Source: Glycomyces niveus (GTDB lineage: Bacteria > Actinomycetota > Actinomycetes > Mycobacteriales > Micromonosporaceae). Taken from it: a stretch of 64,000 bases of DNA. Under the pieces are notes generated by a model. It did not search any database and had not been told where the DNA came from. It worked only from the letters and a program-made list of their open reading frames with translations. The position numbers and the translations under genes were made by a program. Positions 2,657-25,630 of this stretch are shown here, in pieces. Position 1 is the stretch's first letter, and every line of letters begins with the position of its first letter. Where the stretch lies: positions 299,546-363,545 of the forward strand of contig NZ_JAGFNP010000001.1 of assembly GCF_017592475.1 (NCBI RefSeq), written 5' to 3'.

Positions 2657-3319
2657 ATGATCGCCGACCACCTCCCGATCCACCGGCTCCGTCTGCGGAC
2701 CGAACGCCTCGAACTGCGCCTGCCCGCGAACTTCGACGAGCTCGCCGCCCTCGGCGAGGCCGCCGCCGCGGGCGTCCACGACCCGGACTTCATGCCGTTC
2801 TCCGTGCCGTGGACCGCCGCCGACCCCGCGACGGTCGCGCGCGGGACGATCGTCTGGTACCACCGGGCCATCGGCCGCTGGGAACCGCAGGACTGGGGCA
2901 TCCCGTTCCTGGTCTTCCACGAGGGCAAGGCGATCGGCTCGCAGGTCGTCGCCGGCAAGGACTTCAAGATCACCCGCGAGGTCGACTCCGGCTCCTGGAT
3001 CGGCCGCGCCCACCAGGGCAACGGCTTCGGCACCGAGATGCGCGCCGCGATCCTGCACCTCGCGTTCGCCGGACTCGACGCCCAGACCGCCCGCAGCGGC
3101 TCATACATCGGCAACGACGCCTCCGAGCGCGTCTCGCGCCGCCTCGGCTACCGCGCCGACGGCGAGGAGTTCCACGTCGTCCAAGGGAAGCGGCGGCACC
3201 TGCGGCGCTGGCGGCTCTCGCGCGCCGACTGGGAGGCGAACCGCAAGCACGAGGTCGTGATCGACGGCCTCGACGACGACGTACTGGACATGCTCGGCCT
3301 CGCGAAGGAGACCCCGTGA
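2657..3319 (+). CDS. GNAT-family N-acetyltransferase, first tandem copy
   Basis: 220-residue acetyl-CoA-dependent acetyltransferase of the RimJ/RimL-like type, probably acting on a protein N-terminus or small amine; the substrate is unknown. It begins RLRTERLELRLPANFDELAAL (beta-strand 1 and helix 1) and carries the acetyl-CoA loop in RAHQGNGFGTEMRAAILHLAF at about residues 116-136. The tail SRADWEANRKHEVVIDGLDD is shared with the next gene. Its TGA overlaps the GTG of the following paralogue, so the two form one transcription unit made by tandem duplication. Confidence 0.85.
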   Translation: MIADHLPIHRLRLRTERLELRLPANFDELAALGEAAAAGVHDPDFMPFSVPWTAADPATVARGTIVWYHRAIGRWEPQDWGIPFLVFHEGKAIGSQVVAGKDFKITREVDSGSWIGRAHQGNGFGTEMRAAILHLAFAGLDAQTARSGSYIGNDASERVSRRLGYRADGEEFHVVQGKRRHLRRWRLSRADWEANRKHEVVIDGLDDDVLDMLGLAKETP

Positions 3320-3978
3320 CGCTCACCGACTACCTGCCGGCCTACCGGCTGCGCCTGCGCACCGACCGGCTCGAGCTGCGCCTCCCGGACCTCGACGACC
3401 TCGTGGCCCTCGCTGACGAGGCCGCCGCGGGCGTCCACGGACCGGACTTCATGCCGTTCCTGGTGCCGTGGACCGAGTGCGAACCGGTCGAGCGCGGCCG
3501 CCGAACGCTGCTGCACCAGATGGGCGTCATCGCCGGGATCACCCCCGAGCGGTGGATGCTGCCGCTCGTCGTCCTCCACGACGGCAAGGTGATCGGCATG
3601 CAGGAGGTTGGCGCGACCGACTTCAAGGCGACCCGCGAGGCGCACACCGGCTCGTGGCTGGGTCTCGCCCACCACGGCCAGGGCTTCGGCACCGAGATGC
3701 GCGCGGCCGTGCTCGAGTTCGTGTTCACCGGGCTCGGCGCCGACTTCGCGCTGAGCGCCTCGTTCGAGGGCAACGGGCCGTCGGAGGGCGTCTCGCGCAA
3801 GCTCGGCTACAAGGCCGACGGCATCGACCACAAGGTCCTCAACGGCGTGCGCCGCCAGGACAACCGCTGGCGGCTCACCCGGGCCGACTGGGAAGCGAAC
3901 CGCAAACACGAGGTCGCGATCGAGGGCCTGGACGCCGAGGTCCTGGCGTCGCTCGGCCTCGACGGCGCCGAAGCCTGA
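3316..3978 (+). CDS. GNAT-family N-acetyltransferase, second tandem copy
   Basis: Paralogue of the preceding gene, exactly the same length (220 residues) and collinear throughout: RLRTDRLELRLPDLDDLVAL, the acetyl-CoA loop LAHHGQGFGTEMRAAVLEFVF, and the tail TRADWEANRKHEVAIEGLD. The start is GTG at 3316, overlapping the upstream stop as GTGA. The central 60 residues, where GNAT proteins bind the acceptor, differ most, which suggests divergence in substrate. Function beyond acetyl transfer cannot be assigned. Confidence 0.85.
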   Translation: MTLTDYLPAYRLRLRTDRLELRLPDLDDLVALADEAAAGVHGPDFMPFLVPWTECEPVERGRRTLLHQMGVIAGITPERWMLPLVVLHDGKVIGMQEVGATDFKATREAHTGSWLGLAHHGQGFGTEMRAAVLEFVFTGLGADFALSASFEGNGPSEGVSRKLGYKADGIDHKVLNGVRRQDNRWRLTRADWEANRKHEVAIEGLDAEVLASLGLDGAEA

Positions 3979-4040: not shown

Positions 4041-4078
4041 CCGGGGAACGATGCGCTAAAGTAATCATCGTTCCCCGG
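4041..4078 (+). promoter_or_regulatory. 13-bp inverted repeat enclosing a putative tRNA promoter -10
   Basis: Arms CCGGGGAACGATG and CATCGTTCCCCGG are perfectly complementary around a 12-base AT-rich loop that contains TAAAGT, a plausible -10 element 16 bases before the first tRNA-Gly. It may be the terminator of the acetyltransferase pair, the array promoter held inside an operator, or both. No U-tract follows, which argues against a simple terminator. Confidence 0.5.
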
Positions 4079-4094
4079 TCAACACCGGAGAAAT

Positions 4095-4170
4095 GCGGAC
4101 GTAGCGCAGTTGGTAGCGCGACACCTTGCCAAGGTGTAGGTCGCCGGTTCGATCCCGGTCGTCCGCTCCA
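4095..4170 (+). tRNA. glyV: tRNA-Gly(GCC), canonical copy
   Basis: 76 bases with encoded CCA. Acceptor GCGGACG pairs with CGTCCGC, D-arm GCGC/GCGC has an eight-base loop AGTTGGTA, anticodon stem ACACC/GGTGT carries loop TTGCCAA with anticodon GCC, and T-arm GCCGG/CCGGT holds TTCGATC. All stems fold normally. It is the first of four tandem copies and the only one with a normal D-loop. A 12-bp-stem terminator follows. The gene symbol is conventional only. Confidence 0.95.
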
Positions 4171-4177
4171 GTGAGTG

Positions 4178-4205
4178 AAAGGCCCGGTCTTCCGACCGGG
4201 CCTTT
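4178..4205 (+). terminator. Terminator after first tRNA-Gly (repeated in each unit)
   Basis: AAAGGCCCGGTC pairs with GACCGGGCCTTT around a four-base loop, a 12-bp stem. Equivalent hairpins with one G-U pair lie at 4344-4371, 4510-4537 and 4676-4703, so each tRNA seems to end its own transcript. Confidence 0.85.
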
Positions 4206-4236
4206 ACTCTTGCCCGGGAACTGGGGCTGGCTCTGG

Positions 4237-4336
4237 GCGGACGTAGCGCAGTTGGCTGTGCCTTTGCAGCGCTTCGCGCTGGTGCGACACCTTGCCAAGG
4301 TGTAGGTCGCCGGTTCGATCCCGGTCGTCCGCTCCA
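4237..4336 (+). tRNA. tRNA-Gly(GCC) with 24-nt enlarged D-loop, copy 2
   Basis: 100 bases including CCA. Acceptor, anticodon and T-arms are identical to the canonical copy at 4095. After GTTGG the four bases TAGC are replaced by 28 bases that include CAGCGCTTCGCGCTG, a six-bp hairpin with a TTC loop. The D-stem can still form as GCGC/GTGC with one G-U pair, leaving a 32-base D-loop instead of eight. It may be a functional tRNA with an extra arm, a processed precursor, or a pseudogene; the sequence cannot decide. Confidence 0.6.
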
Positions 4337-4402
4337 GTGAGTGAAAGGCTCGGTCTTCCGACCGGGCCTTTACTCTTGCCCGGGAACTGGGGCTGGCTCG
4401 GG

Positions 4403-4502
4403 GCGGACGTAGCGCAGTTGGCTGTGCCTTTGCAGCGCTTCGCGCTGGTGCGACACCTTGCCAAGGTGTAGGTCGCCGGTTCGATCCCGGTCGTCCGCTC
4501 CA
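4403..4502 (+). tRNA. tRNA-Gly(GCC) with 24-nt enlarged D-loop, copy 3
   Basis: Identical in tRNA sequence to the copy at 4237, including the D-loop segment with its internal hairpin, encoded CCA and intact GCC anticodon loop. No substitutions have accumulated in any stem, which is not what is expected of a long-dead pseudogene. Confidence 0.6.
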
Positions 4503-4568
4503 GTGAGTGAAAGGCTCGGTCTTCCGACCGGGCCTTTACTCTTGCCCGGGAACTGGGGCTGGCTCGGG

Positions 4569-4668
4569 GCGGACGTAGCGCAGTTGGCTGTGCCTTTGCA
4601 GCGCTTCGCGCTGGTGCGACACCTTGCCAAGGTGTAGGTCGCCGGTTCGATCCCGGTCGTCCGCTCCA
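4569..4668 (+). tRNA. tRNA-Gly(GCC) with 24-nt enlarged D-loop, copy 4
   Basis: Last copy of the array, identical to copies 2 and 3. Its terminator (4676-4703) runs into TTTCGCTTTGC and then a second hairpin (GGGCCGCCCGTCGGACGGCCC, from about 4721) that also serves the convergent TetR gene. Confidence 0.6.
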
Positions 4669-4746
4669 GTGAGTGAAAGGCTCGGTCTTCCGACCGGGCC
4701 TTTCGCTTTGCTTATCGATGGGCCGCCCGTCGGACGGCCCTCTCGC

Positions 4747-5391
4747 TTATCCCTTGGCGTCCTTGGGAATCCAACGCATGTTCATCTCCTCCTCACTGGG
4801 CGGTGAGCTCGGCAGCGGGCCCCTGGCCGGCGCCTGCAGCGCCTGCAGGTACAGCTCCAGACTCCGCAGCCGCACCTCCCGCGTGCGTTCGGCGTCGCCG
4901 ATGTCGATCGAGGCCAGCGACTCGGTGATCATGATGACGTCGCCGATCTTCACATCCTCGCGGATCGCGCCGGCCTCGTGGAGCTTCCGCATGAGCACGT
5001 CGTTCAATTCGGCCGCCGCCGCGCCCGCGCCGAACATGTCGGGCGTCGGCGTGAAGGTCCCCGCCAGCTTCACGGTGATCGAAGCCGTGTCCGCCGCCAC
5101 GACCTGCCTCATGAAGCGGCAGAACGCCTCCCACATGTCGCCTTCGGCGTCGACCGCCTCCTGCACCAGCGCCACGTGCTTGGCCAGGCCGTCGCCGCAG
5201 AGCTTGCGGAGCAGGTCCTCCTTGCTCGGGTACCGCCGGTACAACGCACTGATGCCGACGCCGGCGCGCTTCGCGACCTCCGCGATCGGCGCCTCGGGGT
5301 TCGCCACGAACACCTCGTGGGCGGCTTCGAGGATGAGCTTGTCGTTGCGGGCGGCCTGGGCCTTGCGCCCGCTGAGCGGCTTGTCGGTCAT
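4747..5391 (-). CDS. TetR-family transcriptional repressor
   Basis: 214 residues. The N-terminal helix-turn-helix spans about residues 20-65 (LILEAAHEVFV, IAEVAKRAGVGISALYRRYPSKEDLL), followed by a helical ligand-binding and dimerisation domain with no recognisable ligand signature. It lies 110 bases downstream of a drug exporter on the same strand and probably represses it, using the inverted repeat at 7050-7070. It also has its own start signal: TAGGAT lies six bases before the ATG, with no Shine-Dalgarno, suggesting a leaderless transcript. Confidence 0.9.
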   Translation of the reverse strand: MTDKPLSGRKAQAARNDKLILEAAHEVFVANPEAPIAEVAKRAGVGISALYRRYPSKEDLLRKLCGDGLAKHVALVQEAVDAEGDMWEAFCRFMRQVVAADTASITVKLAGTFTPTPDMFGAGAAAAELNDVLMRKLHEAGAIREDVKIGDVIMITESLASIDIGDAERTREVRLRSLELYLQALQAPARGPLPSSPPSEEEMNMRWIPKDAKG

Positions 5392-5501: not shown

Positions 5502-6995
5502 CTAGTGCTCGGCCTTGGCCTGCTTCGGGAGACCGAAGGCCACCCCGAAAGCGACCACGGTCAGCAGGACCGTGAGGCCCGTGACCAGCTGCGCCGCGCC
5601 CATCGCCGCGGCGGCTCCGGCGCCGATCGCGAACTGGCTGAAGAAGACCGTCCCGAGGCCGGCCACGCCCAGCGCCGCCGCGCCCTGCTGGAACGACTCC
5701 AGGAGCCCCGAGGCCGAGCCGACCTCGTGGTCTTCGAGGTCGCCGGTGATGATCCCGAACAGCGGCACGAAGATCGCGCCCATCCCGATCCCGAAGACCA
5801 GCAGGGCCGGGACCAACGCCCACGGGCCGGGGGCCGAGTCGCCGCCGAGCTGGAAGAACAGGATCGAGAGGCCGATGACCATGCCGGCGAGGCCGATGTG
5901 GAGGATGTTGCGGCCGAGCTTCGGCGCGATGCCCGCGCCGACACCGGAGCCGATGAACGCGCCGACCGCCCAGGAGGCCATCGCCAGGCTCGCCTTGAGC
6001 GGGCTGTAACCGAGGCCGAGCTGCAGGAACAGGCCGACCGCGAGCGAGAAGCCCGTCACCGAGCCGAAGAAGACGACCACGAACGCGATGCCGGAGGTGT
6101 ACGAGCGCTTCTTGAAGACGCTCAGCTCGATCAGCGCGGTCTTGCCGCTACGGGCGCGGCGGACCTGGAGGCGGACGAAGACGGCCAGGACCGGGACGGA
6201 GGCGACGAGCATGGCGATCGACCAGGCGGGCCAGCCGAGTTCGTGGCCCTCGACGAGCGGGATGAGCAGCAGGCTCATGCCGACCGCAGCGATGACCGCG
6301 CCGCCGAGGTCGAGCTTCAGGCCCTTGACCGTGGGAGCGCCCGCCGGGAGGATCTTCACGCCCAGGGCGAGCGCGGCGATGCCGAGGGGCAGGTTGAGCA
6401 GGAAGATCGAGCGCCAGCCGGAGCCGAACAGGTCGGCGTCGACGAGCAGGCCGGCGAGAATGGGGCCGCCGATGGTGGCGAGGCCGATCATCGGGCCGAA
6501 GAGCGCGTAGGCCTTGCCCATCTCGCGGCCGAACATGTCGCGGATGAGGCCGAAGCACTGCGGCACCATCACGGCCGCGAACGCGCCCTGCACGACGCGG
6601 GCGATGAGCAGCAGCTCGATCGTCCCGGCCGCGCCGCACGCGAGCGAGGCGGCGAGGAAGCCGACCAGGCCGATCATGAGGACCTTCTTGCGGCCGAACA
6701 TGTCGCCGAGGCGACCGCCGGTGAGCAGGCCGATCGCGAGAGCGAGCGTGTATCCGGCGGCGAGCCACTGGATGGTCGCGGCGGTGCCGCCGAGTTCGGT
6801 GCGGATCGCGGGAGCGGCGACGTTGACGATCGACGCGTCGAGCAGGTTGAGGAGGGTCGTCGCGAGGATCGCGATGAGCCCGAGCCAGCGCCGCGGGAAG
6901 GGCGCTTCATTTGCGGCCGAAGCGGTTTCGGCGGTGTCGACGGCCGCGGCGGGGCGCGCGGCGTCGTTGGTCGGGATTTCGGCGGTCAGGGTCAC
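5502..6995 (-). CDS. MFS multidrug exporter, DHA2 (EmrB/QacA-like) family
   Basis: 497-residue integral membrane transporter with 14 predicted helices, using proton motive force to expel drugs or metabolites. The family motifs are present: LDASIVNVAAPAI in helix 1, the loop motif GGRLGDMFGRKKVL between helices 2 and 3, and a helix-5 GPILAG motif. The GTG at 6995 is chosen as start because GGAGG precedes it by six bases; a 17-codon upstream extension to 7046 lacks such a site. The substrate is unknown. The TetR gene downstream and the operator upstream indicate induced expression. Confidence 0.9.
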   Translation of the reverse strand: MTLTAEIPTNDAARPAAAVDTAETASAANEAPFPRRWLGLIAILATTLLNLLDASIVNVAAPAIRTELGGTAATIQWLAAGYTLALAIGLLTGGRLGDMFGRKKVLMIGLVGFLAASLACGAAGTIELLLIARVVQGAFAAVMVPQCFGLIRDMFGREMGKAYALFGPMIGLATIGGPILAGLLVDADLFGSGWRSIFLLNLPLGIAALALGVKILPAGAPTVKGLKLDLGGAVIAAVGMSLLLIPLVEGHELGWPAWSIAMLVASVPVLAVFVRLQVRRARSGKTALIELSVFKKRSYTSGIAFVVVFFGSVTGFSLAVGLFLQLGLGYSPLKASLAMASWAVGAFIGSGVGAGIAPKLGRNILHIGLAGMVIGLSILFFQLGGDSAPGPWALVPALLVFGIGMGAIFVPLFGIITGDLEDHEVGSASGLLESFQQGAAALGVAGLGTVFFSQFAIGAGAAAAMGAAQLVTGLTVLLTVVAFGVAFGLPKQAKAEH

Positions 6996-7049
6996 GGTTG
7001 CCTCCGGGCTCTCGTTGAAGCTGTGGAACGGAACGCTTGATTCCACTAT

Positions 7050-24379: not shown

Positions 24380-25630
24380 ATGCTCCAGCGCATGACCATC
24401 ACCGCGTCCGCCGCACCGCCCGCACCGTCCCTGCCGCGCCCCGGCCGCGCCGAACGGCTCCTCCTGCCCGCCACCTTCATCACCAGCCTCGGGAACGGCA
24501 TCCAACTCGTCGCCGCCGCCGTCCTCGTCTTCACCACCGGCCACAGCGCTCTCGCCGTCGGCTGGCTGTACATCCTCGTCTCCATCCCGCCCGCCCTCCT
24601 CTCCCTCTGGTTCGGCGGCATCGCCGACCGCTTCGACCGCCGCACCCTCTGCCTCATCGCCGATCTCGCCAGCGCCGCAGCCGCACTCGTCCTGCCACTG
24701 TGGATGCTCGTGGGCGGCGATTCCGGTCCCGTCGCCTATGGCACCGCGTTCGCTCTCGCCCTGCTCGCCGCCATGTTCATGCCCGCGAGCAACGCGCTCA
24801 TCAAGGAACGCGTCCACCCCGCCCGTGTCGCCCGCTTCAGCTCCCACTACGAGATGGCGCTCCAGCTCGGCACGCTCCTGGCCGCCTCGATCGGCGGCTT
24901 CCTCATCCACTTCGTCGGCACCGCACCGCTGTTCGTGTTCAACGGCGCGACGTTCCTCGCCTCCGCGCTCGCCATGTGGGCGCTGCGCCGCGCGCCCCGC
25001 TCGACTGATGCTGGCGAAACACAAGCCGAGTTGAACGAAGTGGACGGTTCGCCTCTGCTGCGGCTCGGCTTCCTCTACGCGGTCTGCCAGGTCATGACGA
25101 TGGTCAGCAACACGACCCTGATCGTGCTCGTCTACGAGGGCTTCGGGCGCGGCGCAGGCGTGTACGGGCTCGTGGACGCGCTGGCCGGGCTCGGGTTCTG
25201 CATCGCGGCGGCGCTGTACCCCAAGGTGATCGGCCGGTTCGGAGAGTTCCGGACGGCGGCGGTCGGCGGGATCGTGTGCGCGCTGTGCTCGTTCGTGTTC
25301 CCGATCCATCTGGCGGCGCTGCTGATCTGCATTCCGCCTGCGGCGTTCATGATCGGGCTGTCGCGGGTGGGGATGCGGTCGCTGCTGCTGGCGGCGGTGC
25401 CCGAGCGGCGGGCCGGGCGGATGTTCGGCGCGATCAACGCGGTCGGGCTGGGCCTGTCGGCGGCGATGACGGTCCTCGTGGCGTGGATCGCCGACACCAC
25501 GCATATCCGCTACGGGTTCTACCTGCTCGGCGCGGTCTGCGCGGCGGCGTTCGTGGTGACGGCGGTGACCTTGCGGGGCAGGGTGAGCGGTGTGGCTCCG
25601 GTCCCCGGGGTCGGGGGTGTCGCGTCGTGA
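24380..25630 (+). CDS. MFS transporter (MdtH/enterobactin-exporter-like)
   Basis: 416 residues with 12 predicted membrane helices. Motifs: FITSLGNGIQLVAAAVLVF in helix 1, WFGGIADRFDRRTLCLIADL (loop 2-3 motif A, ~67-86), and the equivalent loop in the second half. The family mostly exports siderophores, drugs or metabolites. The start may be ATG 24380 or 24392; neither has a Shine-Dalgarno. An inverted repeat lies directly upstream. The substrate is unknown. Confidence 0.88.
   Translation: MLQRMTITASAAPPAPSLPRPGRAERLLLPATFITSLGNGIQLVAAAVLVFTTGHSALAVGWLYILVSIPPALLSLWFGGIADRFDRRTLCLIADLASAAAALVLPLWMLVGGDSGPVAYGTAFALALLAAMFMPASNALIKERVHPARVARFSSHYEMALQLGTLLAASIGGFLIHFVGTAPLFVFNGATFLASALAMWALRRAPRSTDAGETQAELNEVDGSPLLRLGFLYAVCQVMTMVSNTTLIVLVYEGFGRGAGVYGLVDALAGLGFCIAAALYPKVIGRFGEFRTAAVGGIVCALCSFVFPIHLAALLICIPPAAFMIGLSRVGMRSLLLAAVPERRAGRMFGAINAVGLGLSAAMTVLVAWIADTTHIRYGFYLLGAVCAAAFVVTAVTLRGRVSGVAPVPGVGGVAS

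What the first reader, a model, noticed from the sequence alone, without database searches (positions are those of the whole stretch)
4095..4703. tRNA-Gly(GCC) array in which three of four copies have a 24-nt enlarged D-loop
Seen: copies 2-4 are identical and keep all stems, the GCC anticodon and CCA, but replace TAGC in the D-loop with 28 bases holding a CAGCGCTTCGCGCTG hairpin. Known: bacterial tRNA insertions are nearly always group I introns in the anticodon loop, not D-loop hairpins. Inference: this is either an unusual tRNA with an extra arm, perhaps processed or used outside normal translation, or a pseudo-tRNA amplified and homogenised by recombination. Identical copies, each with its own terminator, argue for expression or recent amplification.
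Basis: partly seen in the sequence, partly recalled or inferred. Interest (0 to 1): 0.8.

Follow-up and report, generated by a model that had tools for sequence, protein, structure and literature searches.

The report
Five-armed tRNA-glycine copies in Glycomyces
Next to a normal glycine tRNA gene this bacterium carries three extra copies with an added fifth hairpin arm, a structure kept in much of its genus and also found in a proline tRNA, although the extra copies seem to lack a promoter and are probably not ordinary translation tRNAs.

Summary
Window 4095-4170 is a normal tRNA-Gly(GCC); 4237-4336, 4403-4502 and 4569-4668 are identical copies with 24 extra nt. The genus is Glycomyces. The insert can be read as a fifth arm between D-arm and anticodon arm, not only as a big D-loop. 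The insert is no assembly accident: 15 of 22 Glycomyces genomes hold a long Gly copy (two partly assembled), one a remnant, five lack it, one could not be judged. Searches outside the genus found none. A similar arm sits in tRNA-Pro(CGG) copies of 3 of 22 genomes. Over 10 Gly and 3 Pro sequences 3 of 6 arm pairs show two-sided compensatory change and none is broken; the arm diverges about 5 times less than the adjacent insert. Yet the tRNA body decays: 8 of 15 genomes have damaged long Gly copies, against 0 of 33 normal loci. All 13 normal copies examined have an extended -10-like element; 0 of 18 long copies do. Best reading: promoterless tandem tRNA paralogs, probably not used in decoding, homogenised by gene conversion, with an arm still constrained as RNA structure. 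Expression is untested. New variant of a known kind.

The parts
4052..4062 (+). extended -10-like element TGCGCTAAAGT before the normal copy
   Evidence: TGCGNTANNNT in the 60 nt before 13 of 13 normal copies and 0 of 18 long copies; motif chosen after seeing the sequences; the plain sigma-70 consensus scan found no promoter at all here
4095..4170 (+). normal tRNA-Gly(GCC), CCA encoded
   Evidence: same 73-nt body in 30 of 33 normal loci held
4178..4205 (+). terminator-like hairpin after the normal copy
4206..4236 (+). spacer before the first long copy, no extended -10-like element
4237..4336 (+). long (five-armed) tRNA-Gly(GCC) copy 1
4256..4283 (+). 28-base insert that replaces TAGC, copy 1
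4267..4281 (+). fifth-arm hairpin CAGCGC-TTC-GCGCTG, copy 1
   Evidence: fold; covariation
4344..4371 (+). terminator-like hairpin after long copy 1
4403..4502 (+). long tRNA-Gly copy 2, identical to copy 1
4433..4447 (+). fifth-arm hairpin, copy 2
   Evidence: same sequence
4510..4537 (+). terminator-like hairpin after long copy 2
4569..4668 (+). long tRNA-Gly copy 3, identical to copy 1
4599..4613 (+). fifth-arm hairpin, copy 3
   Evidence: same sequence
4676..4703 (+). terminator-like hairpin after long copy 3

Best explanation
The three long genes are promoterless tandem paralogs of the adjacent tRNA-Gly(GCC) that carry an old, genus-specific insert (24 extra nt here, 24-25 in relatives) folding as a fifth arm between D-arm and anticodon arm. 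Shown by sequence: restriction to Glycomyces in the searches made, a similar arm in a tRNA-Pro paralog, concerted evolution with the normal copy in most genomes, body damage in about half of the genomes, pairing conserved in the arm, and lack of the normal copy's -10-like motif. Inferred: they are not used as elongator tRNAs; their sequence is kept tRNA-like by gene conversion from the functional neighbour and their number changes by unequal recombination; any RNA comes from read-through of the preceding terminator; and selection still acts on the arm in that RNA.
For: Long Gly copy in 15 of 22 Glycomyces genomes plus one remnant, on both sides of the midpoint root of the rpoB tree, a root set for drawing only. 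Outside the genus: all 10 stretches of the genome-contig scan are Glycomyces; 6 of 397 order genomes, all of this genus; 1 of 396 phylum genomes, the window's own; 0 viral contigs. Damaged bodies: 8 of 15 genomes (G002, G008, G009, G011, G012, G013, G014, G017) against 0 broken pairs in 33 normal loci, 30 of them identical; Fisher p 2e-5, genomes set against loci. Promoter-like element: 13 of 13 normal, 0 of 18 long. Trailers: mean distance 0.195 to the own normal copy, 0.378 to other species. Arm: mean distance 0.062 against 0.307 in the 5' part of the insert (gaps counted) and 0.22 at rpoB 4-fold sites, 13 genomes; variable columns 3 of 19 against 9 of 12, Fisher p 0.002, or 3 of 15, p 0.007. 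Covariation: 78 of 78 cells paired, 3 of 6 pairs with two-sided change, covariation score reached in 0 of 500 shuffles. Gly and Pro inserts: 11 of 18 pairs compared beat all 2000 plain shuffles.
Against: No transcript data; promoter absence rests on a motif picked after looking, and the standard sigma-70 scan misses the normal copy's promoter too. The terminators have short T runs. Six of 15 genomes, the window's included, have long bodies identical to the normal gene, which fits a working tRNA as well as gene conversion. In 4 of 13 genomes (G007, G010, G012, G017) the trailers are not alike (0.33-0.43). Persistence with rpoB 4-fold divergence up to 0.34 is long for something useless. With Gly alone only 1 pair covaries; the number of covarying pairs is reached by 18 of 500 shuffles, and related rows are not independent. 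RNAalifold on the Gly alignment gave a different fold without covarying pairs, and only 4 of 10 long Gly sequences fold five-armed by energy alone. Against hairpin-preserving shuffles only 5 of 18 Gly-Pro pairs stay at 0 of 2000; for the window's own insert 34 to 192 of 2000 do as well, and G008 with G015 is no better than chance.
Confidence: 0.55

Rival explanations
1. A dedicated non-decoding RNA: the five-armed tRNA is made on purpose (read-through or an unrecognised promoter) and acts outside translation, for example as a decoy for tRNA-binding or tRNA-cutting proteins or as an amino-acyl donor. The arm is the recognition element.
For: Arm with compensatory change and low divergence; similar arm in two isotypes, in G003 in the same normal-long tandem layout as Gly; kept in 15 of 22 genomes, with 3 copies in the window and 4 in G014.
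Against: Absent in 5 of 22 genomes beside an intact normal copy; 8 of 15 genomes have damaged bodies; no promoter-like motif; no partner gene was looked for or identified.
Confidence: 0.22
2. A wholly dead pseudo-tRNA: the arm carries no function, and its perfect pairing is kept by DNA-level correction of short palindromes (template switching) plus shared ancestry or exchange within the genus.
For: No promoter-like motif, damaged bodies, truncated remnants; compensatory change alone can come from template switching (recalled knowledge).
Against: Correction between arms does not explain why the arm diverges 5 times less than the adjacent insert and 3.6 times less than rpoB 4-fold sites; presence on both sides of the rpoB tree.
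Confidence: 0.15
3. A translation-competent five-armed tRNA-Gly that adds to decoding of GGC.
For: Window copies keep all stems, the anticodon, T-loop and CCA; Rfam 51.6 bits is above the cut-off of 29; with four D-stem pairs the five-arm parse leaves an 8-nt D-loop of normal size.
Against: No promoter-like motif; in other species changes such as C2G (2-71 is a bacterial GlyRS identity pair, recalled), A5C, G53T and loss of the T-arm occur; genomes without long copies show two normal genes.
Confidence: 0.05
4. A very small intron-like insert that is removed from the transcript to leave a normal tRNA.
For: Same place in two isotypes; in the window insert the ends carry GTGC repeats; after exact removal of 24 nt an 8-nt D-loop and a paired D-stem would remain.
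Against: Too short for group I or II introns (recalled); not at 37/38; no bulge-helix-bulge seen by eye in the predicted folds; bases 20-25 outside the removed stretch differ from the normal gene although the rest is identical.
Confidence: 0.03

Closest known systems
Canonical bacterial tRNA-Gly(GCC)
   Same: acceptor, anticodon and T arms, anticodon, CCA; identical body in the window
   Different: 24 extra nt that can form a fifth arm, no promoter-like motif, relaxed constraint in relatives
Class II tRNAs with long variable arm (Ser, Leu, Sec; recalled)
   Same: an additional helix leaves the core near the hinge of the L (inference)
   Different: arm lies between D-arm and anticodon arm (25/26) or in the D-loop, not in the variable region
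Bacterial tRNAs with group I or II introns
   Same: insert inside a tRNA gene
   Different: 24-27 nt and not at 37/38; a 2014 review calls introns at 37/38 the only significant structural example in bacterial tRNA genes (PMC4033280, passages)
Promoter-truncated duplicate tRNA genes in a P. fluorescens evolution experiment
   Same: duplicated tRNA genes that add nothing to the mature pool, possibly because the junction cuts the promoter (PMC7661048, passages)
   Different: there duplications of 45-290 kb; here units of 142-166 nt, old, with a conserved added arm
Archaeal non-canonical BHB introns in tRNA genes (recalled)
   Same: inserts outside position 37/38
   Different: no bulge-helix-bulge seen; bacterial host

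Membership tests
canonical elongator tRNA-Gly | cloverleaf stems, GCC anticodon, CCA, D- and T-loop signature bases | tested here: met
   window copies
canonical elongator tRNA-Gly | standard spacing of D-arm and anticodon arm | tested here: not met
   24 extra nt
canonical elongator tRNA-Gly | own promoter | tested here: not met
   TGCGNTANNNT before 0 of 18 long and 13 of 13 normal copies; motif only, chosen after looking; plain sigma-70 scan finds none for either
canonical elongator tRNA-Gly | base pairs kept among relatives | tested here: not met
   8 of 15 genomes with damaged long copies; 0 of 33 normal loci with broken pairs
canonical elongator tRNA-Gly | transcribed, processed and glycylated | not testable with these tools
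   no RNA data
pseudo-tRNA gene | derived from a functional gene but under relaxed constraint | tested here: met
   in relatives, not visible in the window's own intact copies
pseudo-tRNA gene | all parts evolve without constraint | tested here: not met
   arm distance 0.062 against 0.307 for the adjacent insert; covariation
tandem array under concerted evolution | paralogs within a genome more alike than orthologs | tested here: met
   trailers 0.195 against 0.378 on average; 4 of 13 genomes do not show it
dispersed mobile hairpin (REP or MITE-like) | copies elsewhere in the genome | tested here: not met
   16-mer only in the 3 long copies of the own genome; with up to 3 mismatches 19 of 22 genus hits lie in long Gly copies, the other 3 have 3 mismatches each, and the reversed control gives 11 hits
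group I or II intron | intron core and position 37/38 | tested here: not met
   24 extra nt beside the D-arm; Rfam at gathering score finds only the four tRNAs in the window
BHB intron | bulge-helix-bulge at the junctions | tested here: inconclusive
   none seen by eye in minimum-energy folds; no dedicated scan

The most novel reading that the evidence does not exclude
Glycomyces carries a genus-specific class of five-armed tRNA-derived RNAs (Gly and Pro members), encoded as the second gene of normal-long tandems and made by terminator read-through, whose extra arm is a selected recognition structure serving a role outside decoding. It would be a naturally conserved five-arm cloverleaf in bacteria.
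Probability: 0.25. Interest if true: 0.85.

Novelty: new variant of a known kind. Interest (0 to 1): 0.6.

Why it matters
A 2014 review describes bacterial tRNA genes as surprisingly uniform, with introns at 37/38 as the only significant example of structural diversity (PMC4033280, passages); a 2020 review of odd tRNAs showed no such case in the 12 of 28 passages I saw (PMC7609411). It also adds a case to the known problem that non-canonical tRNA genes are counted as standard ones (PMC9897764, abstract): Rfam passes the long copies as tRNA and ARAGORN gives them a wrong anticodon.

Tried and rejected
Assembly error: rejected for the insert, since other Glycomyces species have it; array length remains uncertain, and G013 (N run) and G015 (contig break) are not assembled through the locus.

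Mobile hairpin: no dispersed copies. In one search a loose pattern also gave many unrelated hits, and its reversed control gave more.

Other genera: none. One search used strict filters, E <= 1e-17, and its sample held 11 Glycomyces, of which 6 matched. One search is an exact pattern whose sample held only the window's own Glycomyces. The Pro pattern hit 1 of 394 class genomes, G883; ARAGORN finds no tRNA in that locus and the flanks do not continue as a tRNA, so I take it as chance. All these searches need near-Gly or near-Pro sequence, so unrelated five-arm tRNAs elsewhere are not excluded.

Folding: RNAalifold on A1 gave a non-cloverleaf consensus with no covarying pair, a result against the five-arm fold; that alignment is nearly invariant and includes the broken G009. 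By energy alone 4 of 10 long Gly sequences (window, G010, G005, G007) fold five-armed and six (G016, G008, G001, G012, G011, G014) do not. The G003 and G011 Pro sequences fold five-armed; G015 Pro folds similarly with a weaker D-arm.

Literature: Glycomyces with tRNA-Gly 0 papers; D-loop insertion with hairpin 0; enlarged D-loop 2, one read in passages and about misfolding without a modification, the other, a fish mitochondrial genome, seen as a listing only; five-arm with cloverleaf 0. Searches were seen as listings; no title or abstract start shown there describes such genes. From, PMC12803027 (M. avium tRNA arrays) was looked at in passages without such a case. Only the open-access library was searched.

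Failed or replaced steps: empty tRNA output; pattern too strict; rpoB tree with wrong reading frames, replaced; script error, replaced. One search, with an insert of fixed length, matched only 3 of 101 genomes and was superseded.

Full report
What is there. The window holds a normal tRNA-Gly(GCC) at 4095-4170 and three identical longer copies at 4237-4336, 4403-4502 and 4569-4668. Rfam scores them 69.8 and 51.6 bits, above the cut-off of 29. TAGC is replaced by 28 bases with a CAGCGC-TTC-GCGCTG hairpin. A terminator-like hairpin follows each copy. In the whole genome RF00005 finds 49 tRNAs; these three matches are the only ones of 97 bases, the next longest being 89, and two normal Gly(GCC) genes are present.

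How it folds. The minimum-energy fold of the window copy has five arms: acceptor, D (six pairs, UUGG loop), a 6-bp extra arm, anticodon and T. The D-stem strand GCGC can pair with a first GTGC, which with four pairs leaves an 8-nt D-loop and puts an extra arm before nucleotide 26, or with a second GTGC, giving one big D-loop. The first parse is better by 1.6-5.3 kcal/mol in 10 of 10 Gly sequences once non-standard pairs are taken out, and it is the one that works in the Pro sequences of G003 and G011, where the second GTGC is missing (alignment). Against it: only 4 of 10 long Gly sequences fold five-armed by energy alone, and RNAalifold on the Gly alignment gave another consensus.

Where it occurs. 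All 10 stretches found in the named genome collection are Glycomyces, and equal contig lengths tie ten G-handle genomes of the window's genus to them, so the window is taken as Glycomyces. Of 22 genus genomes: 12 have one or more long Gly copies through the 3' end (G000 x3, G014 x4, G001, G002, G005, G007, G008, G009, G010, G011, G012, G016), G017 has a 3'-truncated one, G013 and G015 have partly assembled ones, G021 a remnant; G003, G004, G018, G019 and G020 show none in the roughly 650 nt behind an intact normal copy nor among the listed model hits; in G006 the locus was not found. Outside the genus nothing was found. On the rpoB tree the long copy lies on both sides of the midpoint root, so it is old in the genus or was exchanged within it.

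A second isotype. The Gly model also found tRNA-Pro(CGG) copies with a similar insert in G003, G011 and G015, with a possible remnant in G017 (by eye). In G003 the Pro copy sits directly behind a normal tRNA-Pro with a terminator-like hairpin between them, as in Gly; in G011 it follows the 3' half of a tRNA-Pro that seems split by an integrated element; in G015 a normal Pro lies 2.1 kb upstream. Comparing 6 Gly and 3 Pro inserts, 11 of 18 pairs beat all 2000 plain shuffles (22-25 of 32-33 aligned positions identical) and 5 of 18 also beat all 2000 hairpin-preserving shuffles; the window's own insert is a weaker match (0, 3 and 24 of 2000 plain; 35, 34 and 192 hairpin-preserving) and G008 with G015 is at chance. 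Common origin is likely, not proven.

Constraint on the arm. In 13 genomes the 15-nt hairpin has a mean distance of 0.062, against 0.307 for the 5' part of the same insert (gaps counted as differences) and 0.22 for rpoB 4-fold sites, range 0.10-0.34. Variable columns are 3 of 15 in the hairpin against 9 of 12 in the 5' part, Fisher p 0.007, or 0.002 with the four invariant bases that follow. Across 10 Gly and 3 Pro sequences all 78 cells are paired and 3 of 6 pairs changed on both sides; 0 of 500 shuffles reach the covariation score, 18 of 500 reach the number of covarying pairs. With Gly alone one pair covaries. The sequences are related, so counts are not independent events.

Relaxation of the body. 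Of 15 genomes with a long Gly copy, 8 have damage outside the insert: G008 and G013 (A27.C43), G011 (G53T), G012 (A5C), G014 (C2G and T41G in all four copies), G002 (T-loop), G009 (a second hairpin inserted in the T-loop), G017 (3' half deleted). Six are intact (G000, G001, G005, G007, G010, G016), and G015 is intact as far as assembled. Normal copies: 33 loci, 30 identical, none with a broken pair.

Expression. TGCGNTANNNT starts 41-43 nt upstream of 13 of 13 normal copies and is missing in the 60 nt before 18 of 18 long copies; a bare TANNNT occurs before 3 of 18, all in the window's own array. The motif was chosen after looking, and a plain sigma-70 consensus scan found no promoter before any copy, the normal one included. 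In G001 and G002 the leader but not the promoter-like element was duplicated (by eye). So the long copies probably depend on read-through of terminators whose T runs are short. This is inference from motifs.

Concerted evolution. Trailers differ on average by 0.195 between a genome's normal and last long copy, and by 0.378 between a normal copy and other species' long copies; 9 of 13 genomes lie at 0.22 or less, while G007, G010, G012 and G017 (0.33-0.43) do not show the effect. G005, G001 and G016 have leftover spacers of deleted copies, and G021 has a normal D-arm in a long-type position (by eye). Copy number is therefore fluid, and the identity of the window's copies needs no selection.

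Conclusion. These are promoterless, tandemly duplicated tRNA paralogs with an added, structurally conserved fifth arm. They probably do not decode. Whether the arm's conservation reflects a job in read-through RNA (my lead), a dedicated RNA, or DNA-level palindrome correction cannot be settled without RNA data.

Noticed in passing
window 25353-25444 (+): ARAGORN calls a tRNA-Ser(GCT) here, but Rfam at gathering score reports no tRNA there; possibly a false call or degenerate gene.
   Followed up: no
L099 (G011:C12), reverse complement 389-433: A 3' half of tRNA-Pro(CGG) lies next to what looks by eye like an integrase reading frame, just upstream of the long Pro copy at 487; the DNA behind tRNA-Pro differs strongly among genomes, as at an integration hot spot.
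   Followed up: partly
L040 (G009) long Gly copy, T-loop: A second hairpin-bearing insert (CCAGC-TTC-GCTGG) of about 29 nt sits in the T-loop of the G. buryatensis long copy, so such hairpins can be gained more than once.
   Followed up: no
window 2657-3319 and the frame ending at 3978 (+): Two adjacent, similar, acetyltransferase-like frames precede the tRNA array; a TetR-like frame (4747-5391, -) and an MFS-like frame (5502-7046, -) follow (names by eye, not searched).
   Followed up: no
L026 (G002) normal tRNA-Gly: One normal copy of G002 carries a compensated acceptor pair change (C6T with G67A), showing that normal copies keep pairing when they change.
   Followed up: yes
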